Assembly: GCA_002086835.1 (NCBI GenBank)
Contig: MVIG01000012.1
Span: 124,001 to 188,000, forward strand
Origin: Mycolicibacterium porcinum
GTDB taxonomy: Bacteria > Actinomycetota > Actinomycetes > Mycobacteriales > Mycobacteriaceae
Length of the DNA: 64,000 nt
Direction: 5' to 3'
Part shown: positions 15,228 through 64,000 of the stretch, in pieces
Layout of the letters: each line of letters begins with the position of its first letter
Numbering within the stretch: the stretch's first letter is position 1
Notes under the pieces: generated by a model
The model's input: the letters and a program-made list of their open reading frames with translations, nothing else
What the model was told of the DNA's origin: nothing
Databases searched by the model: none
Program-made: the position numbers and the translations under genes

Positions 15228-15289
15228 CCGTGCATTGGATCGCACGTAGCTGATCAAGGTTGTGTGCGGAGCGCTGATCGGGGGATCGG

Positions 15290-17302: not shown

Positions 17303-17331
17303 CACTGAAACCAGCAGGGAGACCGACCGCA

Positions 17332-17757: not shown

Positions 17758-17815
17758 ACCCGTTCGCCCCGGCGCAGATTTTCCATCGCGGTACTGTCTC
17801 ATGTCTAAATCGTCG

Positions 17816-25510: not shown

Positions 25511-25521
25511 GGTATGTCTTC

Positions 25522-27555: not shown

Positions 27556-27761
27556 TACTGTCCTTTCCACCAGGGCCGATGCCGCAGCAATCGGCTCCCG
27601 TCGGAGCGTCACTGTGCTCGGCGAACCCGCCGCGCAGCCACCCCTGTGGCACGGGAGGCATACGCATTCTGCCCTGAGTTGCCGACACCGGGCCCCACTG
27701 CCACGGCCAAACCGGCCATGAACCTGGCGATACCGGGAGAGATTGCCGGGAATGCGACCAT

Positions 27762-46472: not shown

Positions 46473-46924
46473 CGAGCTCCATGCGTGCCGCGCGGCGTCG
46501 CGTCGACGGTCTTGCCGACCCGGTCGACCAGCAACGCCATCTCGTAGCCGACCTGTCCGATGTCACACGAGATCGAGGCCAGCGTGGCCAGATACGAACC
46601 GTTGCCGACGCCCATCAAAAGCAGGAAACCGTCGTCCATCTCGACGATCGACTGGCGTACGTTGCCTGCCTCGAACAACCGGGCGGCTCCGGTCGACAGG
46701 CTCGCCAGACCGGAGGTGACCGCGGCCAGTTGCTCGGCACGGTCTGACGGGAGGTGGGAGTTCGACGCCATCAGCAGACCGTCGGCCGACACCAGAATCG
46801 CGTGGGACACGCCCGGCACGTCGCGCACGAAGTTGGACACGAACCAGTCGAGGGTGCCGGAGGTCCCTGACGGTGTTGCAGCAGACCCCGCGGACCGTTC
46901 ATGTGGTTGCGTGCCGGTGTTCAT
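46469..46924 (-). CDS. conservon roadblock/LC7 protein (CvnB-like)
   Basis: A 151-residue roadblock/LC7 protein with [29 protein letters not shown] and [16 protein letters not shown]. Roadblock proteins bind small GTPases, here the CvnD-like protein. It is the second conservon member (relative of Rv3364c) and overlaps the neighbouring genes by 4 bases each. Confidence 0.93.
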
Positions 46925-49590
46925 CGATCTCCTTCGATTCGGCTGTGTGCTGCATCGGTTTCGGCTCGGCCCCTGCGTACGCCGGCCAGTTGGCGGCTCA
47001 GGATGTCTCGGATGGCGGCGGGATCGTTGGCTCCGTCGGCCCTGGCCTGGGTGTCCGATCTTGCCTCATCGGGCACCAGGCGCGCGCCGCGTTCGCGAAT
47101 CGGCAGCCCGGATGCGGTGTGCCGCTTCGGTTCCTGCTCCACGGCTTTCGCGGCGGCTTCCCAGCTGGCGTCAGTGGCGCTGGCCCAGACCCGACCCCGG
47201 GACTCCGGTGTCGTCGGATCCATCAGCCACTCCGAGGCCATCCGCTCGAAGATCGGCGCGCTCTCCAAACTGTCCGCCTCGATGCGCCGTTGTCCGGATT
47301 CGGTGCCCCGCTCAGGTTCCGGGCTCGGCGGCGTGGCGGTGGTGTCCGGGGCACTCGAGCTGGGAGCGCCCGAGGTGAAGTAGGAGAGCGGATTTCCGCG
47401 TTGCGGACGTTCGGGTTCTTCGGGGGCCGCGGCGGGTGCCGGGGCGGTCAGCCCGTTCGCCGGCGCCGGGACGCCGGTCACGCCGCTGGCACCGGGCGAT
47501 CGTTTCGGCAGCCCGCTGGCGGTCGACCGGGCTGGGGCGTCCGGCCCGCGTTCGGGCTGCTCCGGCGCCGGGTGGGAGCCGTTGGACGCCGCCGGCGCCG
47601 CCGAGCCCGCGCCGGTGTGTGCACCCCGCCCGCCGGCGATGGACCGTGGCGCGGATTCGGTGAACGAGCCGTTGCGCAGATCGTCGAGGGTCTCGCCCAC
47701 GCCGAGGGGTGTGACCAGCGTGCCTGGCAGGTGCACGCTCGCCGTCACGCCGGGCCGGTCGGTCAGTGCCGAGGTGGTCCGCAGCCGCACCGTGGCCTCG
47801 TGGCGACGCGCGAGTCGGCCGACCACGAACAGGCCCATCCGCTTGGCGGTTTCGGAGGTCACCTCGCCACCGAGCGCGAGGCGTTCGTTGGCGGCGGTCA
47901 AGTCGTCCTTGGACATGCCCAGCCCACGGTCGGCCACTTCGACCAACAGGCCGGCGTCGACCGCGCGCCCGACCGTCACCATCACCGGCGAGTCCGGCGG
48001 CGAGTAGCGCAGGGCATTGTCCAGCAGCTCGGCGATCAGGTGGCCGATATCGCTTGCGGCCGAGCCTGCGATCGAGACGTCGGCCATGTGCCCGACCTGC
48101 ACGCGGCGGTACTCCTCGACCTCGGACATGGCGGCACGCAGCATGTCGGGCAGTGGGACCGGGGCCGCGGCGCGGTGACGTTCCACCGTGTCGGCCAGGA
48201 CCAGCAGGTTGTCGCCGTTGCGCCGCATGCGGGTGGCGAGGTGATCGAGGCGGAAGAGGTGATCGAGACGGACCGGGTCCTCCTCGTCGAGCTCCAGCGT
48301 CTCGATGAGGGTCAGCTGCTCCTCGACCAGCGACCGGCTTCGGCGCGACAGGGTCTCGAACATGTCGCCGATCTGCAGGCGGACGCCGTGCTCGCTGGCG
48401 AGGCGGACGGCTTGGGAGTGGATGTCGTCGATCGCGCGCGCGAGCTGACCCACCTCTTCGTTGGTCCGGAACGGCAGCGCCTGGATTTCCGGCATGCCGC
48501 CGCCCTTGCTGAGGCGTTCGATCTCCTCGGGCAGTTCGACCTGTGCCACCTGCAGCGCTCCCTGGCGCAGCCGGCCGATCGACCGGATCAGTGAGCGGCC
48601 GACCGCCAGCGCGAAGACGAGGGCGGCCAGCACGGCGCCGAGGATGATCGCGGTGTCACGCAGGGCGTCCGAACGCAAGATGTTGGCGCGGTGGTGCAGC
48701 GTGCCGTCGAGGTCGGCGGACAGGCGCTGGGTCATCGCGCGGTACTGGTCGACGCTCGCGCGCATCGCCTCGGTGAAGGCGGGTGTGCGCACGCTGTCGG
48801 TGGACGGCTGGGTGTAGGTGCCGCGACGGACGTCGGATTCCTTGGCCAACGCCGCGGTGTCATCGGTGGGTGTCAGCCGGCCGAGCCGGTCGATGGCTGC
48901 TGCTTCTGCGCCTGCTGCGTCCGCCACCTTGGTCCGCAGCTCGTCGGATTCGGCGAAGTCCGGGGTGGCGATCAGCACCCGCTGCGTGGTCAGTGCGCGC
49001 TGCGCGGTGAGCGCGTCCACGAGTTGGTCGGCGAGCGGTCGCACGACGCGGTCGTCGACGGTTCCTGTGGTCGTCGCGATCGCGGAGACGACGCCGGATG
49101 CCACGGTGGCCGCGCGGTCGGCGATCACGCGCTGCGGGAGCGGTCCGGATTTGATGTCGTCGCGCAGCGTCTTGGCGGTCGAGGTCGCGGCCGTCAGCTG
49201 TGCCGCAGCGGTCGGGTCGAACTCGGCGGACGTGATCAGGGTGTCGAGGGCCTTGGCGCTCTCGTCGAACTGTGCGAGGGGCTCCGCGAGCGGTGCGCCC
49301 GAGGCGGCGGCGTAGGCCAGCCCGTCGAGCCGGTCGACCAGCTCCACGGCAGGAACGACGACCACCGAGTTGTCGGAGGCCACGTTCAGCCGCGATGCGG
49401 CCGACAACTCGCTATAGATACGGACGGCACCGAACGTCGCCGCGAGCAGGATCGGCAATACCAGGGTCGCCGCAACCTTCCATCGCAGCGGCCAGCTCTC
49501 GATCGATGTGCGAGAAGCCCGCGTCACGGTCGGACGCGCATGTTCTCCGACGCTCGGATCATGTGCATCCACAGCCGTACCACCCTTCAC
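46921..49590 (-). CDS. conservon sensor kinase-like protein (CvnA-like)
   Basis: An 889-residue protein. A helix near 35-55 and a second near 305-335 bracket a ~250-residue extracellular nitrate/nitrite-type sensing region. A HAMP-like segment follows, then a GHKL ATPase domain (about 440-570: [30 protein letters not shown]). The last 300 residues are Pro/Ala/Glu-rich and disordered. No conventional phosphorylated His box is evident. It heads the conservon (relative of Rv3365c). A GTG near 49572 is a possible later start. Confidence 0.9.
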
Positions 49591-50734: not shown

Positions 50735-51472
50735 CTACAGCGTTCGCAACGCTCCGCCGTCCACCGCGATCGTGCAGCCGGTGAGGTAGGACGCCGCGGG
50801 CGACGCCACGAATGCGACGGTCCGTCCGAACTCGGCCGGCTCACCGATCCGCCCGAGCGGGATGTTGCCGAGTTCGCGGGTGCCTGCACCGGCACCGCGT
50901 GCGGTGTCGAACCGGCCGGGCAGCAGACTCACCACGCGGATGCCGCGCGGTCCCAGTTCGTCGGCGATGTCCTTGGCCGCCATTGCCAGGCCCGGCCGCA
51001 GCCCGTTGGAGATTCCGAGCCCGGTCAGCGGGGATTTCACCGAGGTCGACAGGACCAGGACGATCGCGCCGCCGTCCGGCATTTCCGGGACCGCGGCGCG
51101 GATCAGCCGGAGCGCCCCGAGAAATACTGACCGGAAAGACCTTTCCCAGTCCTCGTCGGTGGCGGCCAGCGCGGTCGACGGTGGCGGGCCGCCCACGCTG
51201 ATCACCAGCCCGTCGAGCCGGCCCCACCGGGCGATGGTCGATGCGACGAGGTGTTCGGCCGCCGCGGGATCCCCGTTGTCGGCGGCCACGCCCTCGACGG
51301 CGCCGTGCCAGTCCGCATCGAGTCGGTGTACCGCGGCGGCGACCTTGCTCTCCGATCGCGAGGCGATGGTCACGACGGCGCCTTCGCGAAGGAGTTCACG
51401 CGCCGAGGCGAAACCCAGGCCCTCGCTGCCACCGGTCACCACAAATGCCTTGTCGGACAATCCGAGATCCAC
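50735..51472 (-). CDS. SDR-family protein lacking the catalytic Tyr
   Basis: A 245-residue SDR starts at GTG 51472 (DLGLSDKAFVVTGGSEGLGF). The cofactor motif TGGSEGLG is present and the protein ends GCTIAVDGGALRTL. At the active site it reads LSTSVKSPLTGLGISNGLRP, so the YxxxK Tyr is replaced by Asn and the Lys by Arg. This variant occurs in a known FabG-like subgroup. It is divergent from the flavin monooxygenase across a spacer that holds a LysR-type box at 51505-51521, so it may belong to the same regulon. Confidence 0.87.
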   Translation of the reverse strand: MDLGLSDKAFVVTGGSEGLGFASARELLREGAVVTIASRSESKVAAAVHRLDADWHGAVEGVAADNGDPAAAEHLVASTIARWGRLDGLVISVGGPPPSTALAATDEDWERSFRSVFLGALRLIRAAVPEMPDGGAIVLVLSTSVKSPLTGLGISNGLRPGLAMAAKDIADELGPRGIRVVSLLPGRFDTARGAGAGTRELGNIPLGRIGEPAEFGRTVAFVASPAASYLTGCTIAVDGGALRTL

Positions 51473-51504
51473 GAGCTCAAGCCTAGATCGGCCCCGGCCC
51501 ACTG

Positions 51505-51521
51505 CATCGTTTTGTCAGATG
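51505..51521. promoter_or_regulatory. LysR-type box 1 (CATC-N9-GATG)
   Basis: CATCGTTTTGTCAGATG is the first of four CATC-N9-GATG dyads in promoter regions of this cluster. The spacing gives the T-N11-A pattern of LysR-family sites. It lies between the divergent SDR and monooxygenase starts. Confidence 0.6.
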
Positions 51522-51608
51522 TAGTGCATCGGATATATGCGCTGTACAGATGTGAGAGCGCGCTGAATCATAGATCCCACAAGTCCGTTTGAGCATGTGG
51601 AGGTTGGG

Positions 51609-52892
51609 ATGTCGACGCAAGAGACCGAGGTTCTCGTCGTCGGCGCGGGTCAGGCCGGTATCGCGATGAGCGAGCATCTCGGTCGACATGGCGTGCCGCA
51701 CCTGGTCGTCGAGCGCGATCGTGTCGCCGAGCGCTGGCGGACCTGGCGCTGGGACTCCCTGGTGGCCAACGGACCGGCCTGGCACGACCGTTTTCCGGGG
51801 CTGGAGTTCGACGTCGACCCCGACGATTTCGCCGGGAAGGAGCAGGTCGCCGACTACCTCGCTGCCTATGCCGAGATGATCGACGCGCCGATCCGCACGG
51901 GCGTCGACGTCACCTCGGTGCGGAAGAACGACGGCCGGCCGGGATTTCACGTCGAGACCTCTGCCGGCGTGATCGAGGCGCGCTACGTCGTGGCGGCCAC
52001 CGGCGCATTCCAGAAACCCGTCATACCGCCGGTAATTCCCGAGGACGCCGGACTACACCAGATCCACTCCAGCGGCTACCACAATCCGGAGCAGCTGCCC
52101 GCCGGCGCCGTCCTGGTGATCGGTGCCGGGTCGTCGGGCGTGCAGATCGCCGACGAACTTCAGCGGTCGGGTCGGCAGGTCTACCTCGCGGTCGGCCCAC
52201 ACGATCGGCCCCCACGCAGCTACCGCGGTCGCGACTTCTGTTGGTGGCTGGGCGTTCTCGGCAAGTGGGATATGGCGGCGCCGCCGCTGGGCGCCGAGCA
52301 CGTGACCATCGCCGTCAGCGGGGCCAACGGCGGGCACACCGTGGACTTTCGGTCCCTGGCCGCCACCGGGATCACGCTGCTGGGCATGGCGGGTCCGTAC
52401 GCGGATGGCGTCATGCGCTTCGAGGCCGACCTGCGCGCCAACATCGAGGCCGGTGACGCGAACTACCTGTCCATGCTGGATGAGGCCGATGCCTATGTCG
52501 CCCGCAACGGCATCGACCTGCCCGAGGAACCGCAGGCCCGCATCCTCGGACCCGATCCGGATTGCATGACCGACCCGATCCGCGAACTGGACTTCGCCGC
52601 CGCGGGGATCACGACGGTGATCTGGGCGGTCGGCTTCGCGTTCGACTACGACTGGCTCGAGGTCGACGCTTTCGACGACAAAGGCAGGCCCCTGCACCAG
52701 CGCGGCGTGTCGACCGAACCGGGGATCTACTTCCTGGGTCTCCCGTGGCAGTCCCGCCGCGGATCGAGCTTCATCTGGGGCGTGTGGCACGACGCCAAAT
52801 ACCTCGCCGACCAGATCGCCATCCAGCGCGGCTATCTCGCCTACAAGGCTCCTGAGCAATCCGCCGACCAGAGAAGGGAATGCCGACCATGA
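51609..52892 (+). CDS. flavin monooxygenase, candidate imidazoleacetate oxygenase
   Basis: A 427-residue class B-type flavoprotein; the ATG at 51609 follows GGAGG. FAD motif VVGAGQAGIA, NADPH motif VIGAGSSGVQ and an ATG motif (VVAATGAFQKP) are present, with SLVANGPAWHDRFPG before the substrate region. It is the first gene of a five-gene operon with RidA-like, DUF1028, M20 and aspartase genes. In histamine breakdown an oxygenase of this kind attacks imidazoleacetate, which is the role I infer here from the context. Other heterocycle or amine substrates remain possible. Confidence 0.85.
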   Translation: MSTQETEVLVVGAGQAGIAMSEHLGRHGVPHLVVERDRVAERWRTWRWDSLVANGPAWHDRFPGLEFDVDPDDFAGKEQVADYLAAYAEMIDAPIRTGVDVTSVRKNDGRPGFHVETSAGVIEARYVVAATGAFQKPVIPPVIPEDAGLHQIHSSGYHNPEQLPAGAVLVIGAGSSGVQIADELQRSGRQVYLAVGPHDRPPRSYRGRDFCWWLGVLGKWDMAAPPLGAEHVTIAVSGANGGHTVDFRSLAATGITLLGMAGPYADGVMRFEADLRANIEAGDANYLSMLDEADAYVARNGIDLPEEPQARILGPDPDCMTDPIRELDFAAAGITTVIWAVGFAFDYDWLEVDAFDDKGRPLHQRGVSTEPGIYFLGLPWQSRRGSSFIWGVWHDAKYLADQIAIQRGYLAYKAPEQSADQRRECRP

Positions 52893-53320
52893 CCGATATC
52901 GCCACACCGACCCACACCAGGATCCGGCCCTTCAACACCAAGGACACCTACCCCGAGCAGAACCTGGACAACGACCTGTGCCAGGCCGTCGTCGCCGGTG
53001 GGGTGGTCTACCTGCGCGGTCAGATCGGGCAGGATCTCGACACCCGCGAGTCCGTCGGCATCGGTGACGTGGCCGCGCAGACCGAAAAGGCGATGAGCAA
53101 CATCGCGATGCTGCTCGAAGAAGCCGGAAGCTCGCTGCGCGACATCGTCAAGGTCACGGTGTACCTGACCGACATCCGCTACCGCGAAACCGTGTACCGG
53201 ATCATGGGCCGCTGGCTCAAGGGTGTCTTCCCGGTCTCGACCGGTTTGGTCGTGGAGGCGCTGGCCAGGCCCGAGTGGCTGGTCGAGATCGACGCCACCG
53301 CGGTGCTTTCGGGGAAGTGA
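52889..53320 (+). CDS. RidA-family protein without the canonical Arg
   Basis: A 143-residue YjgF/YER057c/UK114 protein (VVAGGVVYLRGQIGQDLDT, VKVTVYLTDIRYRETVYRIMG). In archetypal RidA the segment PARS supplies the Arg that holds the substrate carboxylate; here the aligned piece is FPVSTGLVVE, so that Arg is absent. The protein therefore acts on something other than simple enamino acids. Its start overlaps the monooxygenase gene by 4 bases. A deiminase role on a formimino or imidazolone intermediate is possible. Confidence 0.88.
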   Translation: MTDIATPTHTRIRPFNTKDTYPEQNLDNDLCQAVVAGGVVYLRGQIGQDLDTRESVGIGDVAAQTEKAMSNIAMLLEEAGSSLRDIVKVTVYLTDIRYRETVYRIMGRWLKGVFPVSTGLVVEALARPEWLVEIDATAVLSGK

Positions 53321-53324
53321 GCGC

Positions 53325-53999
53325 ATGACGTTCTCTTTGGTTGCCCGAGATCCCGGCAGCGGCGCGTTCGGGATCGTGATCTGTTCGTCGAGTCCGGCGG
53401 TCGCCTCCCGCTGCGCACACGCCAGGGCAGGCGTCGGGGTGGTCGCTTCGCAGAACGTGACGAATCCCGCGCTCGGCGGCCTGGTCCTCGATGCGCTCGC
53501 CGCGGGCTCTGACGCCGACGCCGCGCTGGAAGCCGCACTGGCGCAGGAACAGTTCCCCGGCTACCGGCAGGTGACCGTCGTCGACGCCGCCGGCAACACC
53601 GCGGTGCACTCCGGGGCCAACAGCCTGGGGATCCACACCCATCTGGAGGGCGATCAGGCGGTGGCCGCAGGCAATCTGCTCGCTGACGAGTCGGTGATCA
53701 CCCAATTGCTGGCCGGTTATGCCGGCAGTGGCGCGGCCGCCTTCGAGGAGCGGCTGCTCGACGGTCTGCGGGCCGCGCTGCTCGCCGGTGGCGAGGCGGG
53801 TCCGGTGCATTCGGCGGGAATGCTTGTCGTAGAGGACGTCCCGTGGCCGGTGACCGACCTGCGGGTGGACCACGCCGACGATCCCATCGGAGATCTGGCC
53901 GCACTGTGGCAGCTCTGGCAGCCGCAGAAGAACGACTACCGGATCCGGGGCATCGACCCCACGCAGGCACCGTCGTACGGCGTTCCGGGGGACCGGTGA
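53325..53999 (+). CDS. DUF1028 family protein
   Basis: A 224-residue protein beginning MTFSLVARDPGSGAFGIVICSS, the standard opening of DUF1028, with VVASQNVTNPALGGLVLDAL, AVHSGANS and VHSAGMLVVE. The family has an Ntn-hydrolase-like fold and often neighbours RidA and M20 genes in degradative operons, but no reaction is established. It lies 4 bases after the RidA-like gene and overlaps the next start (GTGA). Confidence 0.9.
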   Translation: MTFSLVARDPGSGAFGIVICSSSPAVASRCAHARAGVGVVASQNVTNPALGGLVLDALAAGSDADAALEAALAQEQFPGYRQVTVVDAAGNTAVHSGANSLGIHTHLEGDQAVAAGNLLADESVITQLLAGYAGSGAAAFEERLLDGLRAALLAGGEAGPVHSAGMLVVEDVPWPVTDLRVDHADDPIGDLAALWQLWQPQKNDYRIRGIDPTQAPSYGVPGDR

Positions 54000-55153
54000 G
54001 CACCATGGACGCGGCTGTCGCCGACGGGGTCCGCACGTCCCACCCCCGGCTGACCCGGTTGTCCCGCGACCTCTTCGACCATCCCGAGATCGCCTGGGAG
54101 GAGGTGCGTTCCGCCCGGCGGGTCGCCCAAGAGTTGTCCGAGGGCGGGTTCGATGTCACCGAACGCTACTGCGGGCTGGACACCGCGTTCGCCGCGCGGA
54201 TCGGCACGGGGGATCTGCACTTCGCGTTGTGTGCCGAGTACGACGCGCTGCCCGGCCTCGGGCACGCGTGCGGCCACAACCTCATCTCCGCGATCACGGT
54301 CGGCGCCGCCCTCGCCCTGGCCCCGTTCGTCGACGATCTCGGCCTGACCCTTTCGGTGATCGGCACTCCCGCCGAAGAAGGCGGCGGGGGCAAGATCGAA
54401 CTGCTCGAGCGCGACGGGTTCGCCGGGCAGCACGCCGCCGCGATGGTGCATCCCGGTCCGGTCGACGTGGCGCGGGCCCGGCCGTTCGCGGTGTCGCACA
54501 GTCACATCGGGTATCACGGCAAGTCCGCCCACGCCGCGGCCTACCCGGAGCGCGGTGTCAATGCCGCCGATGCGTTCACCATCGCCCAGGTCGCCATCGG
54601 ATTGCTGCGCCAGCAGCTGCCGTCGTCGGTACGGGTACACGGCATGATGACCCGCGGCGGTGAGGCGCCCAACGCGATCGCCGAACACACAGAGGGGCGC
54701 TGGTACGTGCGCGCCGAGACGCTGGCCCAACTGGCAGAGGTCGAGCCGAAGGTGATGCGCTGCTTCGAGGCCGGTGCCCTGGCCACCGGTGCGACGCTCA
54801 CCGTGACGCCGGAGTCCAAGCCGTACGCCGAGTTCCGCACCGATGACGAGCTTCTCGCGTGTTATGAGCGACGGGCGGTGGCTGCGGGCAGGCAGTTCGC
54901 GACCGGGCCGGACACCATGATGGCGCGGGCTTCGACCGACATGGGCAATGTCTCGCAGACCCTGCCCGCGATCCACCCGTACATCGGGATCGACTCGCTG
55001 CCCGCGGTCAACCACCAGCCGGAGTTCGCCGCGGCCACCGTCACGCCCGCGGCCGAGACGGCCATCGCGCAGGGCGCCATCGCCCTGGCGGGCACCGTCG
55101 TCGATGCCGCCGGACAGGCCCAGATCCGTCACCGACTGTTGCACCGGGAGTGA
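53996..55153 (+). CDS. M20-family amidohydrolase
   Basis: The GTG at 53996 overlaps the previous stop by 4 bases. The 385-residue metal-dependent hydrolase has ALCAEYDALPGLGHACGHN (metal His), the catalytic Glu in GTPAEEGGGGK, and the dimerisation domain with SHIGYHGKSAHAAAYPERGVN. It resembles AbgB/aminobenzoyl-glutamate-type amidohydrolases that split N-acyl amino acids. Placed directly before aspartase, it could release aspartate from N-formyl- or N-formimino-aspartate, which is an inference. Confidence 0.88.
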   Translation: MSTMDAAVADGVRTSHPRLTRLSRDLFDHPEIAWEEVRSARRVAQELSEGGFDVTERYCGLDTAFAARIGTGDLHFALCAEYDALPGLGHACGHNLISAITVGAALALAPFVDDLGLTLSVIGTPAEEGGGGKIELLERDGFAGQHAAAMVHPGPVDVARARPFAVSHSHIGYHGKSAHAAAYPERGVNAADAFTIAQVAIGLLRQQLPSSVRVHGMMTRGGEAPNAIAEHTEGRWYVRAETLAQLAEVEPKVMRCFEAGALATGATLTVTPESKPYAEFRTDDELLACYERRAVAAGRQFATGPDTMMARASTDMGNVSQTLPAIHPYIGIDSLPAVNHQPEFAAATVTPAAETAIAQGAIALAGTVVDAAGQAQIRHRLLHRE

Positions 55154-55158
55154 AATCC

Positions 55159-56562
<1,404 letters not shown>

Positions 56563-56571
56563 CGCAGCGTC

Positions 56572-57486
56572 TCAGGCCGGGTCCGTGAAGATCGCGCGGG
56601 CGGTGTCGGCGACGGCCCGCGCCCGCGCGGTGGTGCGCACCGATTGCAGCCGGGCCAGCACGATCGGTAGTCCCGGCAGGTCGTCGCGAATGGGCACGGC
56701 GCTGACGGCACCGCCGTCGTAGGTGCCCGGATGAGCGGGCAGCTGGTTCAGGATCGAGAAGCCGTGCCCGCGGGCGACCAGGCCGCGAACCGCCTCGTAG
56801 CTGGCCGACCGGTACCGGATCCGCGGGGTCACACCGGCTTTGGCGAGTATCGATTCGAAGTAGTCCCGGCTGTCGGGCAGGTCGAGCAGGACCATCGGCT
56901 CGTCGGCCAACTCGGTCAGCTCGATGGACTTGCGCTTGGCAAGCCGGTGATCGAGCGGCAATGCGACGTAGGGTGCGGCGACACCGAGTTGCTCGGCGTC
57001 CACCCCCGAGTTCAGTCCCAGGTCGTAGGTCAACGCCAGTTCGGCGGTGCCGTTGCGCAGCACGTTGGGGATCGCGTCCGCGGACGTCTCGATGACCTCG
57101 ACCTCAAGGTCGGGATGGCGGGCCGCGAGGTCGGACAGCAAGCGCGGCAGGATGAATGGCGTCAGGGTGACGAAGCAGGCCAACCGGACCGTGCCGTGTA
57201 CCTGGTCGACGCTGCCGCTGGCACTGTCGAGCACCTCGTCCAGGTGCGCGAGCAGCGCCCGGGTGTCGCGCAGCATGTCCTCGCCGGCGGCGGTCAGCGC
57301 CAGCCCGCGGGCGCGGTGCCGGATGAACAGCTGTGTGCCGATCTGCTGCTCGAGTTGACTGATGGCGGCCGAGACCGCCGACTGTGCGATGTGCAACTCG
57401 TCGGCGGCCTTGGTCATGGACAGCTGGGTGGCGGCTTTCACGAAGTACCGCAGCTGCGTGAGCGTGACGTCGGGACGTCTGCGCAT
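56572..57486 (-). CDS. LysR-family regulator of the amine cluster
   Basis: The ATG at 57486 (MRRRPDVTLTQLRYFVKAAT) follows AGGGAG. The HTH QLSMTKAADELHIAQSAVSAAISQLEQ is followed by an effector domain of ~210 residues. The gene follows the permease gene in the same direction and probably shares its promoter. Four T-N11-A boxes at the cluster promoters are its likely targets. LysR proteins usually respond to a pathway intermediate, here perhaps imidazoleacetate or histamine. Confidence 0.92.
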   Translation of the reverse strand: MRRRPDVTLTQLRYFVKAATQLSMTKAADELHIAQSAVSAAISQLEQQIGTQLFIRHRARGLALTAAGEDMLRDTRALLAHLDEVLDSASGSVDQVHGTVRLACFVTLTPFILPRLLSDLAARHPDLEVEVIETSADAIPNVLRNGTAELALTYDLGLNSGVDAEQLGVAAPYVALPLDHRLAKRKSIELTELADEPMVLLDLPDSRDYFESILAKAGVTPRIRYRSASYEAVRGLVARGHGFSILNQLPAHPGTYDGGAVSAVPIRDDLPGLPIVLARLQSVRTTARARAVADTARAIFTDPA

Positions 57487-57533
57487 TCCGGTACTCCCTA
57501 CTTGCTCCTCTTCTGGGGCGCGGGCTACCAGCA

Positions 57534-59108
57534 TTACAGCTGTGCGGCTTCCTTACCAGGAACTCGGGTGTCCACATCGTCCACTGGTGCGGTGACCGGG
57601 CGTTCGGCTCGCACCGGCCGGGCTCGCAGGTAACCCAGGGCACCGAGGAGGCCCAGCACCGCCAGCGTGCCCAGCGTGAACACCTCGAAGGTCAGCTGGC
57701 TGACGCCCCAGGTTTCCTGGAAGTCGTAGTCGAGGCCGAACAGGCGCTCCAGGGTGCCGGGGAACACCGCGACCCATGAGCCCAGCGCCACCCAGGCGAA
57801 GCACAACCCGCCCAGAACGCGGAACCCGGTGTTGCCGGTGGGCACCCGGAACGGCCGCACCACCTCGGGGAAGCGGGTGCGCAGCCGCACCGCCGCGGGG
57901 ATCGCGATCACGTAGCTCAGCAGGAAGGTGGAGATCGAAATGCTCAGCACCACAGCGAAGATCGATGCCGACGATCCGGTGACCTGCATGGCGACCAGGC
58001 AGAACACCGTCGCCACCGTGCCGGACAACAGGTTGACGCGAACCGGGGTGCCCAGCTCGGGATGGAAGCGGCCGAAGAAGCCGCCGAAGAACGCGCCGTC
58101 GGCCGCGGCCATGGCCTGCATGCGGTCGCTGATGATCATCCAGGCGGAGCCCTGGGTCATGAGCACGACGGCGAAGATCACCGCGGTGGTGGTCAGCATC
58201 GCCGGCGCGGCCGGTCCATACACGCTGAAGACCTTGGCGACCGCCTCCATGAGTCCGCCGATGCCGGTGATGTCGTCGGCAGGCAGCACGATCAGGATCG
58301 CGAAGATGGGCAGCAGGTAGGCGGCCGCGGCGATCCCCGCCGAGCGGGCGATCGCGAAGGGAACGTCGCGGGCCGGGTTCTTCATCTCACCGGCGGCGCT
58401 GTTGCCCGACTCGAAACCGAGGTAGGAGAACAGCAGCAGCGGGGTGACGCCGAGCAGCCCGCCCAGCGTCGGGGCGAAGTCACTGGCCGACAGCCCCGCG
58501 ACCCCGTTGCGGATCGCGTAGATCACCGTGGTCACGAGAAACACCGCGAGGAAGACGATCTTGAGGACGGCGCCGATGTTTGGGATCCACTTGCCGTGCT
58601 GCAGGCTGATGATGGCGGCCAGCACCGTCAGCCAGATGAACACCAGCTTGAACGCGTAGTCGACGGGTGAGCCGTGCTCGAAGGGCGTCACGTAGGTGCT
58701 CCAGGCCTCCGAGGCGATGAAGGCCATCGATCCGCCGACCCAGACCGGTTGGGTCACCCACGTCAGCAGGGAGGCGATGGCCGCGGCGGGACGGCCGAAA
58801 GCCTTTCGGCACCAGACGTATACGCCACCTTCGCCGGTGAATGCGGCGCCGGTCTCGGCGAAGATCAGACCGTAGGGCACGAGGAAGAACACCGCGAGCA
58901 CCAGGGCCCAGGTGAAGGTCTCGGCACCGAACCCGGAAACCTGTCCCAGCGCCTCGATCGAGACGACGGCCGCGACGATCAGGAAGACGATGTCGAGCCG
59001 GCCCAGGGATTTCTTGAGGTGTTTGACCTCGCGCTCGGCCTGGGCGGTCTGTGACCCCGGGGCCGGTTCGGATGCCGGATGCACTGCTGGTTCCACGACT
59101 GGTTCCAC
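57534..59108 (-). CDS. APC-superfamily amino-acid/amine permease
   Basis: A 524-residue transporter with about 12 helices; the first reads RLDIVFLIVAAVVSIEALGQVSG. It resembles glutamate:GABA-antiporter-like and putrescine-type APC proteins (GEGGVYVWCRKAFGRP, SYLGFESGNSAAGEMKNPARDVP). It likely imports the amine or amino acid used by the cluster. It is divergent from the amine dehydrogenase; the shared spacer holds LysR-type boxes at 59202 and 59308. The start is GTG 59108. Confidence 0.9.
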   Translation of the reverse strand: MEPVVEPAVHPASEPAPGSQTAQAEREVKHLKKSLGRLDIVFLIVAAVVSIEALGQVSGFGAETFTWALVLAVFFLVPYGLIFAETGAAFTGEGGVYVWCRKAFGRPAAAIASLLTWVTQPVWVGGSMAFIASEAWSTYVTPFEHGSPVDYAFKLVFIWLTVLAAIISLQHGKWIPNIGAVLKIVFLAVFLVTTVIYAIRNGVAGLSASDFAPTLGGLLGVTPLLLFSYLGFESGNSAAGEMKNPARDVPFAIARSAGIAAAAYLLPIFAILIVLPADDITGIGGLMEAVAKVFSVYGPAAPAMLTTTAVIFAVVLMTQGSAWMIISDRMQAMAAADGAFFGGFFGRFHPELGTPVRVNLLSGTVATVFCLVAMQVTGSSASIFAVVLSISISTFLLSYVIAIPAAVRLRTRFPEVVRPFRVPTGNTGFRVLGGLCFAWVALGSWVAVFPGTLERLFGLDYDFQETWGVSQLTFEVFTLGTLAVLGLLGALGYLRARPVRAERPVTAPVDDVDTRVPGKEAAQL

Positions 59109-59201
59109 GACGGATGACCTTCTGTTCTTGCTGTGGATGTGATCGCCCCCACACTGACGGGTCGTCGACGCAGCTGTAAAACATCCGTTTCCGTGTATTC
59201 A

Positions 59202-59218
59202 CATCAGAAATTCAGATG
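59202..59218. promoter_or_regulatory. LysR-type box 2 (CATC-N9-GATG)
   Basis: CATCAGAAATTCAGATG is an imperfect 17-bp dyad 93 bases upstream of the permease start. It shares CATC, the 9-base spacing and TCAGATG with boxes 1 and 3. Confidence 0.65.
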
Positions 59219-59307
59219 AAACCGTCGGCTGGTCGGGCGTGCTCGGCGCCCGCGGACGACCGGGCTCGTCGCCAGGGAACAAGGGAGAAGTCGGGTACCC
59301 CTTATCG

Positions 59308-59324
59308 CATCGATAAATCAGATG
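59308..59324. promoter_or_regulatory. LysR-type box 3 (CATC-N9-GATG)
   Basis: CATCGATAAATCAGATG ends 21 bases before the TTGACC of the amine dehydrogenase promoter, a normal activation position for a LysR protein. Confidence 0.65.
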
Positions 59325-59345
59325 CAGAACCGCTGAAACAACTAG

Positions 59346-59374
59346 TTGACCTCTGTTTGATGCGGCACCACGAT
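59346..59374 (+). promoter_or_regulatory. candidate amine dehydrogenase promoter
   Basis: TTGACC (59346-59351), a 17-base spacer and CACGAT (59369-59374) form a promoter with a weak -10, as expected if an activator bound at box 3 is needed. The start would be near 59381. Confidence 0.45.
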
Positions 59375-59456
59375 GGCTGGTAACCGCGTGAGCCAGGTCA
59401 CGCACAGCCCCGAGCGCATCGCGCCAGCCGCCCGCAAAAGTCTAGGAAGTGACCCC

Positions 59457-61592
59457 ATGCGAGATCCCCGCTACGACATTCTCTTCGAGCCCGTACAGAT
59501 CGGCCCGGTCACCGCACGCAACCGCTTCTACCAGGTACCGCACTGCAACGGCATGGGCTACCGCGACCCGTCCGGTGAGGCCTACATGCGCCGGATCAAG
59601 GCCGAGGGCGGGTGGGCCGTGGTGTGCACCGAGCAGGTCGAGATCCACCCCACCTCCGACATCGGCCCGTTCATCGAACTGCGGCTGTGGGACGACCAGG
59701 ACCTGCCCGCCGTGGCCCGGATCGCGGAGAAGATCCACGAGGGCGGCGCGCTCGCCGGCATCGAGCTCGCGCACAACGGCCTGAACTCCCCGAACCTGAT
59801 CAGCCGGGAAACACCGCTCGGTCCGCAGAACCTGCCCGTCGTGTCCTGGAACTACGACCCGGTCCAGGCCCGCGAGATGACCAAGGCCGACATCGCCGAC
59901 ATGCGGTACTGGCATCGCGAGGCCGTCCGCCGGTCCCTGCAAGCCGAATACGACATCATCTACGTCTACGCCGGCCACGCCATCGGCGGGCTGCACCACT
60001 TCCTGTCCCGGCGCTACAACAACCGCACCGACGAATACGGCGGCAGCATCGAGAACCGGGCCCGTCTGCTGCGCGAGATCCTCGAGGACACCCGCGAGAT
60101 GTGCGCCGGCAAGGCCGCCGTCGCCTGCCGTATCTCGGTCGACGAGTTGCTCGGCGACGAGGGCATCACGCGCGCCGAGATCGAAGACGTCATCGGCATG
60201 CTCGGCGAGCACCCCGATCTCTGGGACTTCGTGCTGGGCAGCTGGGAGGACGATTCGGTGACCTCCCGCTTCGGCCCCGAGGCCGAGCAGGAGCCCTATG
60301 TCCGCGGACTCAAGGCGCTGACCACCAAACCGGTTGTGGGCGTAGGTCGTTTCACCTCGCCGGACATGATGGTGCACCAGGTGAAGAGCGGCGTGCTCGA
60401 CCTGATCGGCGCGGCCAGGCCCTCGATCGCCGATCCGTTCCTGCCCAGCAAGATCGAGACCGGCCACCTCGAAGACATCCGCGAGTGCATCGGCTGCAAC
60501 ATCTGCGTGTCCGGCGACTTCACGATGTCGCCGATCCGCTGCACCCAGAACCCCACCATGGGCGAGGAATTCCGCCGCGGCTGGCACCCGGAGAAGATCC
60601 GGGCCCGCTCCAGCGACTCATCGGTGCTTGTGGTCGGGGCCGGCCCGGCCGGCCTTGAGGCCGCGCGATCCCTGGGCAACCGCGGATACCGCGTGAGCCT
60701 GGCCGAAGCCACCCGCACCCTGGGCGGTCGTGTCGCACGGGAGTCCAAGCTGCCGAGCCTGTCGGCCTGGATCCGCGTCGTCGACTACCGCGAGGCACAA
60801 CTCGCCAAGCTCGACAACGTCGATGTCTTCATGCAGAGCGAGATGACTGCCGACGACATCATCGAGAACGACTTCAACCATGTCGTCGTCGCCACGGGTG
60901 CGTCGTGGCGCCACGACGGAGTCGGCCGGTTCCACACCAAGCCGCTCGAAATCGCCGAGGGCGCAGATATTTTGAGCCCCGACGACATCATGGCCGGCAC
61001 TCGTCCGCGCGGTCGGCGGGTCGTGGTGTTCGACGACGACCACTACTACCTGGGTGGGGTGATCGCCGAGCTGCTGGCCAAGGAGGGGCTCGAGGTCACG
61101 TTGGTCACCCCCGCCGCGCACGTGTCTCAGTGGACCACCAACACCCTGGAAGTGGCGCGGATCCGCAAGCGGGTGATCCGGGCCGGGGTCGACGTGCGGA
61201 CCAACACCGCCGTCACCGCGGTCACGGCCGACGGCGTGACGACCGCCTGTGTGTACACCGGCGACGAAAGCGCGCTGAGCGCCGACTCCGTCGTGATGGT
61301 GACCGCCCGCCTTCCGCACGACGGTCTCTACCAGGACCTGTTGGCGCGTCGAGGCGACTGGGCTCAAAAGGGCCGGGTCGACCTGCTCAGCGTGCGCGCC
61401 ATCGGCGACGCCTGGGCCCCGGCCACCATCGCGGCCGCCGTCTGGTCCGGGCACCGCTACGCCGAGGAACTCGACGAACCACAGCCCGTCGGCCCCGTCC
61501 CGTACCTGCGTGAAACTGCAGAGATCGCACTTGAAAGTCCCGGCACCCGTGGCTTTTTACCCATCACGCCGGTCGAACCGGCGAACGTCTGA
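59457..61592 (+). CDS. histamine dehydrogenase (TMADH-family iron-sulfur flavoprotein)
   Basis: The ATG at 59457 (MRDPRYDILFEPVQIGP) follows AGGAAG. The 711-residue protein matches trimethylamine dehydrogenase along its length. It has Cys30 in FYQVPHC for 6-S-cysteinyl FMN, Tyr171, His174 and Asp266 for the catalytic triad, and the 4Fe-4S cluster Cys344, 347, 350 and 362. An NAD/ADP-binding domain with VVGAGPAGLEAA follows. The TMADH aromatic bowl Tyr60, Trp264, Trp355 aligns with Gln60, Trp263, Asp354 here. This is the same Gln/Trp/Asp set reported for Nocardioides simplex histamine dehydrogenase. It should deaminate histamine to imidazole acetaldehyde. Confidence 0.85.
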   Translation: MRDPRYDILFEPVQIGPVTARNRFYQVPHCNGMGYRDPSGEAYMRRIKAEGGWAVVCTEQVEIHPTSDIGPFIELRLWDDQDLPAVARIAEKIHEGGALAGIELAHNGLNSPNLISRETPLGPQNLPVVSWNYDPVQAREMTKADIADMRYWHREAVRRSLQAEYDIIYVYAGHAIGGLHHFLSRRYNNRTDEYGGSIENRARLLREILEDTREMCAGKAAVACRISVDELLGDEGITRAEIEDVIGMLGEHPDLWDFVLGSWEDDSVTSRFGPEAEQEPYVRGLKALTTKPVVGVGRFTSPDMMVHQVKSGVLDLIGAARPSIADPFLPSKIETGHLEDIRECIGCNICVSGDFTMSPIRCTQNPTMGEEFRRGWHPEKIRARSSDSSVLVVGAGPAGLEAARSLGNRGYRVSLAEATRTLGGRVARESKLPSLSAWIRVVDYREAQLAKLDNVDVFMQSEMTADDIIENDFNHVVVATGASWRHDGVGRFHTKPLEIAEGADILSPDDIMAGTRPRGRRVVVFDDDHYYLGGVIAELLAKEGLEVTLVTPAAHVSQWTTNTLEVARIRKRVIRAGVDVRTNTAVTAVTADGVTTACVYTGDESALSADSVVMVTARLPHDGLYQDLLARRGDWAQKGRVDLLSVRAIGDAWAPATIAAAVWSGHRYAEELDEPQPVGPVPYLRETAEIALESPGTRGFLPITPVEPANV

Positions 61593-61604
61593 GGAGAAGC
61601 ACCT

Positions 61605-61982
61605 ATGACCAGTATTTGCAGCCCAGTAGCCCTGATCCCGTCCGGCCCGGACGCCGTCGCGACCATGACCGCCAGCAGCTACGTCACCCCCGAGTCCCTG
61701 CGTGAGGGCGACCCGGCCGAGCGGGAGGCCGTGCATCTGTCCAGCTCCGACGAGAAGTTCACCGTCGGTTCGTGGAGCGCCGAGCCCTACGCCGAGTTCA
61801 TCGAGAGCTACCCCGGTGACGAGTACACCAGGGTCCTGCAGGGGTCGATCACCCTGACCGGAGACGACGGCGTCGCCCACACCTTCGGCCCCGGCGACTC
61901 CTTCACCCTGGCCAAAGGTTGGCGCGGCGAGTACCGGGTCACCGAACCCCTGGTCAAGCAGTTCGCGATCTACGTTTCCTGA
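61605..61982 (+). CDS. cupin (DUF861/EutQ-like) protein
   Basis: A 125-residue small cupin with GSWSAEPYAEFIESYPGDEYTRVLQGSITLT and FGPGDSFTLAKGWRGEYRV. The metal-ligand positions of enzymatic cupins are only partly kept, so it may bind a ligand rather than catalyse. It starts 12 bases after the amine dehydrogenase stop and 11 bases before the aldehyde dehydrogenase gene, so it is part of the operon. Related cupins accompany amine and ureide catabolic genes. Confidence 0.85.
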   Translation: MTSICSPVALIPSGPDAVATMTASSYVTPESLREGDPAEREAVHLSSSDEKFTVGSWSAEPYAEFIESYPGDEYTRVLQGSITLTGDDGVAHTFGPGDSFTLAKGWRGEYRVTEPLVKQFAIYVS

Positions 61983-61993
61983 GAGGCAGACAG

Positions 61994-63475
61994 ATGACCA
62001 CGCTCGACGACTGGACCCGACTCGCCGCCGAGATCACCCCGCGTACCGAGGTTTTCATCGACGGCAAGTACCGGTCCGCGGCGACCGGGGCGACGTTCGA
62101 CTCGATCAATCCCGCCACCGGCGAATTGATCGCATCGGTGGCGTCGGCCGATGCCACCGATGTCGACGCCGCCGTGGCTTCGGGGCGCGAAGCCTTCGAA
62201 TCGGGCGTCTGGTCCCGGACATCGCCGGCGCATCGTAAACGGGTGCTGCGGGCGCTGTCCGACCTGGTGATGGAGCGCAGCGAGGAGCTGGCGTTGCTGG
62301 ATTCGATGGACATGGGAAAGCTCGTCTCCGAGGCCCATACCGTCGACGTGCCCTCGGCCGCAGAACTTTTCGCCTACTACGGCGAGGCGGTCGACAAACA
62401 GAGCGGCGAGATCGCCCCTACCGAGCCGGGCAACCTCGCCCTGGTGACCCGGGAACCACTCGGTGTCATCGGCGCGGTGACCCCATGGAATTTCCCGCTG
62501 GACCTCGCGGTGTGGAAGTTGGCGCCGGCGCTGGCGGCGGGCAACTCTGTCGTGCTCAAACCTGCCGAGCAGGCACCGCTTTCGTCGATCCGGCTGGCCG
62601 AGCTCGCGGTCGAGGCAGGTCTGCCCGAAGGCGTGCTCAACGTCGTACCCGGCCTCGGGCCCACGGCCGGTGAGGCGCTCGGGCGGCACCCGGATGTCGA
62701 TGTCATCGCCTTCACCGGATCCACGGATACCGGCAAGCGGTTCCTGCGCTACGCCGCGGATTCCAACGCCAAACAGGTCTGGCTGGAAATGGGCGGCAAG
62801 AGCCCGAACCTGGTGTTCGCCGACGCCGACCTGGACGCGGCGGTGGACAAGGCGATCTTCGGCGCCTTCTACAACCAGGGTGCGGTGTGCTCGTCGAACT
62901 CCCGGTTGATGCTGCACGAGTCGATCGCCGAGGAGTTCCTCGCCGAACTGGTCAAGCGCACGGCCTCCGTGCGGCCCGGGAACCCCCTCGATCCGGCGTC
63001 GACCCTGGGTGCACTGGTCGACGAGTCGCACACCGCGCGGGTGGTCGGTTTCATCGACCGGGCCCGCGCCGATGGCGACATCTTGACCGGCGGTACCCGC
63101 GAGACCGTCGACGGCCGTGGCTGTTTCGTCGCCCCGACGATCGTCGCCAACCTGCCGTCGACTGCCGAGCTGATCACCGACGAGGTGTTCGGTCCGGTGC
63201 TGGCCGTGCAGACCTTCGCCGACGAGGCGCAGGCGATCGCGATGGCCAACGACACGATCTACGGTCTGGCCGCCTCGGTGTGGACGCGTGACCTGTCGCG
63301 GGCCCATCGGGTCTCGGCGGCCTTGCGGGCCGGCACAGTCTCGGTCAACACCGTCGACGCGTTGAGCGCGCAGACCCCGTTCGGTGGATTCAAGCAATCG
63401 GGCTTCGGCCGGGACCTCTCGTTGCATGCGCTCGACAAGTACACCGGCCTCAAGACCACCTGGATCGCGTTGTGA
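61994..63475 (+). CDS. aldehyde dehydrogenase (PuuC-like)
   Basis: The ATG at 61994 follows GAGAGG. The 493-residue NAD(P)-dependent enzyme has TPWNFPLDLAVWKLAPALAAGN, the cofactor motif FTGSTDTGK, the catalytic Glu in LEMGGKSPN and the catalytic Cys in FYNQGAVCSS. It resembles E. coli PuuC, which oxidises an amine-derived aldehyde, including the end segment PFGGFKQSGFGRDLSLHALDK. Downstream of an amine dehydrogenase it would oxidise the product aldehyde, here probably imidazole acetaldehyde, to the acid. Confidence 0.92.
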   Translation: MTTLDDWTRLAAEITPRTEVFIDGKYRSAATGATFDSINPATGELIASVASADATDVDAAVASGREAFESGVWSRTSPAHRKRVLRALSDLVMERSEELALLDSMDMGKLVSEAHTVDVPSAAELFAYYGEAVDKQSGEIAPTEPGNLALVTREPLGVIGAVTPWNFPLDLAVWKLAPALAAGNSVVLKPAEQAPLSSIRLAELAVEAGLPEGVLNVVPGLGPTAGEALGRHPDVDVIAFTGSTDTGKRFLRYAADSNAKQVWLEMGGKSPNLVFADADLDAAVDKAIFGAFYNQGAVCSSNSRLMLHESIAEEFLAELVKRTASVRPGNPLDPASTLGALVDESHTARVVGFIDRARADGDILTGGTRETVDGRGCFVAPTIVANLPSTAELITDEVFGPVLAVQTFADEAQAIAMANDTIYGLAASVWTRDLSRAHRVSAALRAGTVSVNTVDALSAQTPFGGFKQSGFGRDLSLHALDKYTGLKTTWIAL

Positions 63476-63565
63476 CCTGCCGGCGCCGTATCTGAATAGG
63501 GCTGTACAACAAGAGGTTCGGCGGCTCTGTGATACATCGACGCAACGTATCGCTAACACCCCGGT

Positions 63566-63582
63566 CATCAGGAGAACTGATG
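63566..63582. promoter_or_regulatory. LysR-type box 4 (CATC-N9-GATG)
   Basis: CATCAGGAGAACTGATG has perfect 6-bp arms (CATCAG/CTGATG) and lies 117 bases before the NCS1 permease start. It lacks the TCA of the other three boxes but keeps the CATC-N9-GATG frame. Confidence 0.55.
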
Positions 63583-63699
63583 AACAACGTCTGAATTGGC
63601 TGCTTTATGGCGAGGACAACTACGCGAATACTCAGGTGCGTCGAAGTCAGCGTGCATCGGCACCACCCGTCCCATCTCTGCACCAGAAAGTGAAGTCAG

Positions 63700-64000
63700 A
63701 TGAACGAACAGGCGCCGGTGACCGCACCCGTGGAGCAGCGGACCATCGATCACGTCCCTCTCGATGAGCGCCACGGCCGGGCCCGTGATCTGTTCACCGT
63801 GTGGTTCGGATCGAACATCATGCTGTTGACCATCATCACCGGCGCGCTGGCGACCACGGTGTTCGGCCTACCGCTGTGGGCCGGCGCCCTCGCGATCGTG
63901 ATGGGCAACGTCGTCGGCGGCATCGTGATGGCGCTGCATGCCGCGCAGGGGCCGCAGATGGGCGTCCCGCAGATGCTGCAGACCCGAGCACAGTTCGGCT
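63700..64000 (+). CDS. NCS1-type permease, N-terminal part (cut by window end)
   Basis: The ATG at 63700 opens a frame that runs off the window after 100 residues: a polar N-terminus (TAPVEQRTIDHVPLDERHGR), then DLFTVWFGSNIMLLTIITGA and a second helix, GALAIVMGNVVGGIVMALHA, ending near GPQMGVPQMLQTRAQFG. This is the start typical of NCS1 cytosine/purine/hydantoin permeases. It may import the heterocyclic substrate or an intermediate of the cluster. It has its own spacer and LysR-type box. Confidence 0.88.
   Translation, partial: MNEQAPVTAPVEQRTIDHVPLDERHGRARDLFTVWFGSNIMLLTIITGALATTVFGLPLWAGALAIVMGNVVGGIVMALHAAQGPQMGVPQMLQTRAQFG

What the first reader, a model, noticed from the sequence alone, without database searches (positions are those of the whole stretch)
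50735..64000. Candidate mycobacterial histamine catabolic regulon
One region encodes an amine dehydrogenase with histamine-type substrate residues, a PuuC-like aldehyde dehydrogenase, a flavin monooxygenase, a RidA-like protein, DUF1028, an M20 amidohydrolase, aspartate ammonia-lyase, two permeases and a LysR regulator. Established knowledge: bacterial histamine breakdown runs through imidazole acetaldehyde, imidazoleacetate, formimino/formyl-aspartate, aspartate and fumarate. Each step has a fitting enzyme here. Inference: the cluster lets the organism use histamine as a C/N source, with the RidA-like, DUF1028 or M20 proteins filling the formimino-aspartate steps. I know of no such locus described in mycobacteria. 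The link to host histamine would be notable.
Basis: partly seen in the sequence, partly recalled or inferred. Interest (0 to 1): 0.92.

Follow-up and report, generated by a model that had tools for sequence, protein, structure and literature searches.

The report
Histamine-eating gene cluster in a mycobacterium
A stretch of a mycobacterial genome carries a complete, apparently co-regulated set of genes that very probably breaks histamine down to a common cell fuel; the pathway is known from other bacteria, but here it is built with a different first enzyme and carries its own control signal.

Summary
The genes are really there, and the histamine reading holds. The amine dehydrogenase matches crystallised Nocardioides simplex histamine dehydrogenase at 1054 bits and keeps 7 of 8 published histamine-site residues. 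The operon FMO-RidA-DUF1028-M20-aspA has the gene order of Pseudomonas hinFLHG, with a hinI-type gene added: its first three products are 70, 68 and 53% identical to those of P. aeruginosa PA7. The window's aldehyde dehydrogenase and LysR regulator have their best PA7 matches in the adjacent hinD and hinK. In 98 same-genus genomes all 6 with this dehydrogenase also hold the hinF orthologue, 3-18 kb away. A LysR-type box, CATC-N9-GATG, precedes the hinF operon, the dehydrogenase/permease pair and the second permease, and recurs before other hinF orthologues (20 of 101; 0-2 at spacings 3-8 and 10-15). Not new: the pathway is known in Pseudomonas and proposed in Brevibacterium, which grows on histamine. 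Apparently new: a dehydrogenase entry (some relatives have a copper oxidase or an aminotransferase instead), a non-orthologous last amidohydrolase, the shared box, a proteasome-like (Ntn) fold for DUF1028, and two peripheral enzymes just beyond the window. No evidence links it to host histamine; activity and growth are untested.

The parts
51505..51521 (+). LysR-type operator CATC-N9-GATG upstream of the FMO operon
   Evidence: CATCGTTTTGTCAGATG; class enriched upstream of FMO orthologues
51597..52892 (+). FAD monooxygenase, HinF orthologue (imidazoleacetate monooxygenase)
   Evidence: 70% identical to PA7 hinF; paralogues in the same genus only 35-42%
52880..53320 (+). RidA-family enamine/imine deaminase, HinL orthologue
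   Evidence: Pfam Ribonuc_L-PSP; 68% to PA7; overlaps FMO stop by 13 nt
53325..53999 (+). DUF1028 protein, HinH orthologue; predicted Ntn hydrolase with Thr2 nucleophile
   Evidence: Pfam; 53% to PA7; Thr2 in 93 of 94; AF2 pLDDT 95.4, HslV/proteasome fold
53996..55153 (+). M20 amidohydrolase at the HinG place (N-formylaspartate deformylase, inferred)
   Evidence: TIGR01891 177.7 bits, cut-off 153.75; PA7 HinG is of the ArgE type with no significant match
55150..56562 (+). aspartate ammonia-lyase (HinI role)
   Evidence: NF008909 717.6 bits against a cut-off of 510; the stricter equivalog TIGR00839 falls short, 637 against 681
56572..57534 (-). LysR-type regulator, HinK-like
   Evidence: best PA7 match (36%, 176.5 bits; next 124) is the LysR next to hinD
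57534..59108 (-). APC-family amine/amino-acid permease, probable histamine importer
   Evidence: AA_permease_2; no tblastn match at E 1e-5 to the PA7 hin1 region
59202..59218 (.). LysR-type box in the permease/dehydrogenase intergenic region
   Evidence: CATCAGAAATTCAGATG
59308..59324 (.). LysR-type box, same intergenic region; a perfect box lies upstream of HADH in 5 of 6 genus genomes
   Evidence: CATCGATAAATCAGATG
59373..61592 (+). histamine dehydrogenase (6-S-Cys-FMN, 4Fe-4S by homology); likely start about 59457
   Evidence: 1054 bits to 3k30, 872 to 6de6; site residues
61605..61982 (+). small cupin-domain protein, role unknown
   Evidence: Cupin_3; same position in 3 of the 5 other HADH genomes of the genus
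61994..63475 (+). aldehyde dehydrogenase, HinD orthologue (imidazole acetaldehyde dehydrogenase)
   Evidence: 60% to the PA7 ALDH beside hinK, next best 51%
63566..63582 (.). LysR-type box before the NCS1 permease
   Evidence: CATCAGGAGAACTGATG
63700..64000 (+). start of NCS1 (cytosine/purine-type) permease, cut by window end; GMC oxidoreductase and Amidohydro_3 follow outside the window

Best explanation
The locus is a histamine (imidazole-C2) catabolic regulon. Histamine enters through the APC permease. The HADH-type flavoprotein deaminates it to imidazole acetaldehyde, passing electrons out through its 4Fe-4S centre. The HinD-like ALDH makes imidazoleacetate. HinF (FMO) oxygenates the ring, HinH (DUF1028, predicted N-terminal-Thr hydrolase) opens the lactam to N-formiminoaspartate, HinL (RidA) hydrolyses the imine to N-formylaspartate, the M20 enzyme removes formate, and aspartate ammonia-lyase gives fumarate and ammonia. 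A HinK-like LysR protein, probably sensing imidazoleacetate, acts at CATC-N9-GATG boxes before both operons and the second permease. Shown here: gene content, orthology of FMO/RidA/DUF1028/ALDH to hin genes, LysR's best PA7 match being the regulator beside hinD, HADH identity and site residues, shared boxes, predicted DUF1028 fold. Taken from the literature on Pseudomonas: pathway steps and HinK ligand. Inferred: the individual chemistry of DUF1028, RidA and M20, regulator-box pairing, transport substrates, growth on histamine.
For: HADH 1054 bits to 3k30 with 7 of 8 histamine-site residues. A Nocardioides locus holds a dehydrogenase scoring 1475 bits to the same crystallised enzyme about 7.5 kb from the hinF gene (L102). 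FMO/RidA/DUF1028 collinear with PA7. LysR and ALDH pick out the hinK-hinD pair of PA7. All 6 genus genomes with this HADH orthologue hold the FMO orthologue, which only 12 of 98 do. FMO+RidA+DUF1028 lie within 4 kb in 69 of 80 named loci. LysR box. In P. putida U the hin genes are required for histamine degradation (review); Brevibacterium with homologues grows on histamine.
Against: Tyr181 of the N. simplex site is Ile here, so specificity may have shifted; N. simplex HDH also oxidises agmatine and putrescine. The APC permease has no BLAST match to PA7 HinA. The M20 protein is not HinG's orthologue. The box is perfect in only 20 of 101 FMO upstream regions, in 2 of 16 of the genus set, and absent in PA7 even with one mismatch. 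No electron acceptor for HADH was identified in the cluster. No activity or growth data.
Confidence: 0.86

Rival explanations
1. The core operon degrades imidazoleacetate, but the dehydrogenase serves another primary amine (agmatine, putrescine, 1,3-diaminopropane), so the locus is two neighbouring pathways.
For: Characterised HDHs oxidise agmatine, putrescine or 1,3-diaminopropane as side substrates (PMC10180351 passages); Tyr181 replaced by Ile; paralogues in two genus genomes have a changed site (L016, L017).
Against: Dehydrogenase and core operon share the LysR box and co-occur in 6 of 6 genus genomes; the ALDH behind the dehydrogenase is the HinD orthologue; 22 of 80 named FMO loci also carry a HADH of at least 50% identity.
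Confidence: 0.08
2. The physiological substrate is not histamine but another imidazole-C2 compound (imidazole-ethanol/histaminol, N-acylhistamine, imidazoleacetate); histamine is only one entry.
For: Choline-oxidase-like GMC and Amidohydro_3 genes follow directly; GMC recurs with the core in loci where no HADH, CuAO or this aminotransferase was matched (L048, L068, L082); an Acetobacter plasmid has core + ALDH + NCS1 permease + GMC with no amine-deaminating gene in its (incomplete) annotation of the stretch.
Against: The HADH is close to a proven histamine enzyme and has boxes in its own upstream region.
Confidence: 0.05
3. The flavoprotein is a trimethylamine/dimethylamine dehydrogenase and the neighbourhood is coincidence.
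For: Same superfamily; TMADH 539 bits.
Against: Half the score of HDH; Gln and Asp at HDH positions 65 and 358 (that TMADH has aromatic residues there is recalled); linkage to the imidazoleacetate operon.
Confidence: 0.01

Closest known systems
hin histamine pathway of Pseudomonas putida U / P. aeruginosa (hinA, C, D, K; hinFLHG; hinI)
   Same: Order FMO-RidA-DUF1028-M20; identity to PA7: HinF 70, HinL 68, HinH 53, HinD 60, HinK 36%
   Different: First step by a flavin/iron-sulfur dehydrogenase instead of HinC aminotransferase; an M20 protein of another subfamily instead of ArgE-like HinG; permease not detectably related to PA7 HinA by BLAST; LysR box not seen in PA7; one locus instead of several
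Putative histamine pathway of Brevibacterium L261/S111/S22 (Anast 2019, PMC6467879)
   Same: Actinobacterial homologues of HinD, F, H, I, L with close locus tags (L261: EB834_10860 to 10895); growth on histamine
   Different: First step assigned there to a copper histamine oxidase or a HinC homologue; HinG assigned to a gene with a distant locus tag; no dehydrogenase or regulatory box in the section read
Histamine dehydrogenase of Nocardioides simplex (3k30) and Rhizobium sp. (6de6)
   Same: 1054 and 872 bits; flavin cysteine and 7 of 8 histamine-site residues
   Different: Ile for Tyr181 (Phe in the Rhizobium enzyme); here the gene has its pathway genes beside it
Copper histamine/amine oxidases, including one of Mycobacterium sp. 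JC1 listed in a table of histamine-degrading enzymes (PMC9547800, passages)
   Same: Would do the same first reaction
   Different: Unrelated enzyme class; none matched in this locus

Membership tests
hin histamine catabolic pathway (Pseudomonas) | HinF-HinL-HinH genes adjacent, orthologous and in order | tested here: met
   70/68/53% to PA7, collinear
hin histamine catabolic pathway (Pseudomonas) | HinG: ArgE-like M20 amidohydrolase | tested here: not met
   PA7 HinG scores 583 bits to an acetylornithine-deacetylase model (cut-off 412), the window M20 only to TIGR01891; BLASTP between them E 0.12; HinG type in 31, window type in 41, both in 1, neither in 9 of 80
hin histamine catabolic pathway (Pseudomonas) | HinI aspartate ammonia-lyase | tested here: met
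   aspA in operon; NF008909 above cut-off, TIGR00839 equivalog slightly below; direct comparison with HinI not made
hin histamine catabolic pathway (Pseudomonas) | HinD aldehyde dehydrogenase and HinK LysR regulator | tested here: met
   Best PA7 matches of window ALDH (60%) and LysR (36%) are neighbours
hin histamine catabolic pathway (Pseudomonas) | HinC class III aminotransferase as first enzyme | tested here: not met
   None among this locus's genes; dehydrogenase instead. A class III aminotransferase (33% to PA7 HinC for the G009 copy) sits in the clusters of G009, G053 and, cut by the stretch, G035
hin histamine catabolic pathway (Pseudomonas) | Growth on histamine dependent on the genes | not testable with these tools
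   -
Histamine dehydrogenase (HDH) | Closest to HDH, above TMADH | tested here: met
   1054 and 872 bits against 539
Histamine dehydrogenase (HDH) | Eight proposed histamine-site residues | tested here: inconclusive
   7 of 8 kept, Tyr181 -> Ile; position is Y/F/I/L among HADHs beside hinF
Histamine dehydrogenase (HDH) | Histamine-oxidising activity | not testable with these tools
   -
MSMEG_0569-type flavoprotein (TIGR04046) | Score above the curated cut-off | tested here: not met
   362 against 498 bits
Ntn hydrolase fold (for DUF1028) | HslV/proteasome-like fold with an N-terminal Thr/Ser/Cys at the nucleophile place | tested here: met
Ntn hydrolase fold (for DUF1028) | Hydrolase activity after Met removal | not testable with these tools
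   -

The most novel reading that the evidence does not exclude
Actinobacteria carry a modular imidazole-C2 regulon: one imidazoleacetate-to-fumarate core under a HinK-like LysR protein acting at CATC-N9-GATG boxes, onto which interchangeable entry modules are plugged: flavin dehydrogenase, copper amine oxidase or aminotransferase for histamine, a choline-oxidase-like GMC enzyme for imidazole-ethanol, and an Amidohydro_3 enzyme for N-acylhistamine. In the core, DUF1028 is a single-domain N-terminal-threonine hydrolase that opens the imidazolone ring, a reaction type not known for that fold (recalled), and an M20 enzyme of another subfamily has displaced HinG.
Probability: 0.35. Interest if true: 0.66.

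Novelty: new variant of a known kind. Interest (0 to 1): 0.5.

Why it matters
It gives a concrete, testable histamine pathway in mycobacteria and links the long-known histamine dehydrogenases to the rest of their pathway. The box lets regulon members be predicted in other actinobacteria, and the DUF1028 prediction would give a mechanism to a family still named 'unknown function'. The pathway itself is not new, so the gain is in assembly, regulation and one enzyme mechanism.

Tried and rejected
Host link: no evidence found; dropped. SDR gene 50735-51502 as a cluster member: rejected, 0 of 80 named loci. FMO as an MSMEG_0569-type flavoprotein: rejected, below cut-off, and 70% identity to PA7 HinF exceeds the 35-42% to same-genus paralogues. 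LysR box in Pseudomonas PA7: looked for in the hinK-hinD and hinF upstream regions, none even with one mismatch. A strict-palindrome search for a T-N11-A site gave one site in one promoter and nothing shared; the CATC-N9-GATG box was seen by eye's output and then tested with other spacings, all 256 half-sites and control genes. It was therefore chosen after seeing part of the data; the promoters it was read from contribute 2 of the 20 FMO hits but all 5 genus HADH hits. In the window alone, matches with up to one mismatch are only slightly above chance (9 against a mean of 4.7; 7 of 100 shuffles reach 9). GMC as a plain choline oxidase: nearest solved structure is choline oxidase, not excluded. 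Identity of 6m5f/3fzv (nearest solved LysR) with HinK could not be confirmed. Literature: no paper on a mycobacterial histamine pathway locus was among the results listed (10-20 per search, of up to 11,868 matching) (open-licence PMC only); 'DUF1028' gave no paper. PMC8921697 and PMC6579920 (passages) only refer back to the Brevibacterium work.
Full report
Where it is. The window is G000:C7:124001-188000 of a 6.96 Mb genome. The genus appears to be Mycobacterium: two same-genus genomes, G008 and G066, have contigs of exactly the lengths of named Mycobacterium records (8,729 and 137,049 bases). The cluster consists of FMO-RidA-DUF1028-M20-aspA (51597-56562, stops and starts overlapping or 4 nt apart), LysR and APC permease on the minus strand, and HADH-cupin-ALDH, followed by an NCS1 permease, a GMC oxidoreductase and an Amidohydro_3 protein that lie mostly outside the window.

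First step. The flavoprotein matches N. simplex histamine dehydrogenase 3k30 with 1054 bits, Rhizobium HDH 6de6 with 872 and trimethylamine dehydrogenase with 539. Of the eight proposed histamine-site residues in PMC10180351 (passages seen) seven are kept; Tyr181 is Ile. That position is Tyr, Phe, Ile or Leu among HADHs beside hinF genes, so the change is a caution and not a disqualification. A Nocardioides sp. SLBN-35 locus (L102) has a dehydrogenase scoring 1475 bits to 3k30 about 7.5 kb from its hinF gene, so the type of enzyme proven biochemically does sit in such clusters.

Core. [quoted passage not shown] putida U and that the genes were then absent from sequenced Gram-positive bacteria; and that HinK responds to imidazoleacetate in P. 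aeruginosa. PMC6467879 (section on histamine read in full) names HinF an FAD monooxygenase, HinL an enamine deaminase, HinH and HinG amidases, HinI aspartase, and shows growth of three Brevibacterium strains on histamine. In P. aeruginosa PA7 the window FMO, RidA and DUF1028 are 70, 68 and 53% identical to three adjacent genes in that order, followed by an ArgE-like HinG. The window ALDH's best PA7 match (60%; next 51%) and the LysR's best match (36%, 176.5 bits; next 124 bits) are neighbours, followed by a permease-like ORF and a class III aminotransferase, which is the hinK-D-A-C order. The hin names in PA7 are mine, from the PAO1 order in the review.

Conservation. In 98 same-genus genomes the HADH orthologue (at least 81% identity) is in 6 and the FMO orthologue (at least 71%) in 12; all 6 have both, with gaps of 2.7 to 17.6 kb. 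Leaving the window's own genome out, that is 5 of 5 where 11 of 97 have the FMO; chance 7e-6, not corrected for relatedness. RidA and DUF1028 are neighbours in 12 of 12, in one (G055) with the FMO on the other strand. Of the 6 without HADH, G009 and G053 have a class III aminotransferase (33% identical to PA7 HinC for the G009 copy), as does G035, cut by the end of the stretch. In the other three (G008, G066, G055) neither HADH, CuAO nor this aminotransferase matched in the stretches fetched, one of which is a contig of only 8.7 kb. Among 80 named loci, the best-scoring 80 and hence not a random sample, RidA and DUF1028 are each in 73, LysR 64, ALDH 43, M20 40, HADH 22, aspA 21, CytP 13, APC 12, CuAO 10, GMC 9, Amidohydro_3 8, cupin 1 (identity thresholds of my own; some loci are cut by contig ends); HADH and CuAO never together. 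15 of the 22 HADH loci are Mesorhizobium, so that exclusion is confounded with taxonomy. The ArgE-like HinG is in 31 and the window-type M20 in 41 of 80 at E 1e-25, both in 1 (there only 34% identical to HinG), neither in 9; this too follows phylum.

Regulation. CATC-N9-GATG, a T-N11-A LysR-type box, lies at 51505, 59202, 59308 and 63566. In the whole genome the stricter CATC-N7-CAGATG occurs 15 times; 3 are in this cluster. Upstream of FMO orthologues perfect boxes occur in 20 of 101 regions against 0-2 for every other spacing from 3 to 15, and CATC is first of 256 half-sites (20; next 9). Perfect boxes by group, genus set then others: FMO 2 of 16 and 18 of 85 (shuffles 0.04 and 0.33); HADH 5 of 6 and 2 of 6; APC 3 of 6 and 2 of 2 (partly the same intergenic regions as HADH); NCS1 permease 1 of 5 and 3 of 5; comparison genes ALDH 0 of 9 and 1 of 28, aspA 0 of 9 and 0 of 18, M20 0 of 15 and 0 of 35. 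With one mismatch allowed: FMO 12 of 16 and 41 of 85 (shuffles 1.5 and 7.9), aspA 2 of 9 and 2 of 18 (0.6 and 1.2), ALDH 2 of 9 and 3 of 28 (0.7 and 2.3), M20 0 of 15 and 2 of 35 (1.1 and 1.9). None in PA7.

Peripheral genes. The GMC protein is closest to choline oxidase among solved structures (393 bits) and Amidohydro_3 to uncharacterised hydrolases. GMC or the NCS1-GMC pair recurs with the core in loci with and without a matched amine-oxidising enzyme, and the box lies before the NCS1 permease in the window, L102, L068, L060 and L057, the last two with identical boxes. Oxidation of imidazole-ethanol and hydrolysis of N-acylhistamine are inferences; that histaminol forms in wine I saw only as a cited title (PMC10706129).

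Verdict. Against the literature it is a new variant: known pathway, different first and last enzymes, one locus, a shared actinobacterial operator. The host link remains speculation.

Noticed in passing
window 23348-27777 (-): A GyrA-like and a GyrB-like protein side by side, possibly a second type II topoisomerase in addition to the genome's gyrase (not checked).
   Followed up: no
window 5000-17800: G+C 62.4% against 67.6% for 18000-50000; two AraC-type regulators, DUF4436, SDRs and a MerR gene: possibly acquired DNA.
   Followed up: partly
window 45530-49590 (-): Histidine-kinase-like ATPase, Roadblock/LC7, DUF742 and an ATP-binding family protein in a row: a conservon-like operon (name recalled; families).
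   Followed up: no
window 39102-40331 (+): Weak serpin match (29.3 bits, cut-off 27) in a bacterial protein.
   Followed up: no
L016 and L017 (second HADH copies of G041 and G033): Histamine-site positions changed (Q65E, I74V, F77Y, N115A): possibly a dehydrogenase for another amine.
   Followed up: partly
L029, M. arabiense plasmid pJCM18538: The FMO-RidA-DUF1028-M20 core (aspA by tblastn) is on a plasmid typed mobilizable, with no dehydrogenase in the 29 kb stretch.
   Followed up: partly
L030, Arthrobacter plasmid: Core operon beside a copper amine oxidase, 885 bits to a solved phenylethylamine oxidase (from A. globiformis, recalled), and an ALDH: an alternative entry enzyme.
   Followed up: yes
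plasmid collection, FMO tblastn: 769 plasmid records match the FMO at E 1e-30, 478 of them Klebsiella, most below 60% identity; probably other flavoproteins, not looked at.
   Followed up: no
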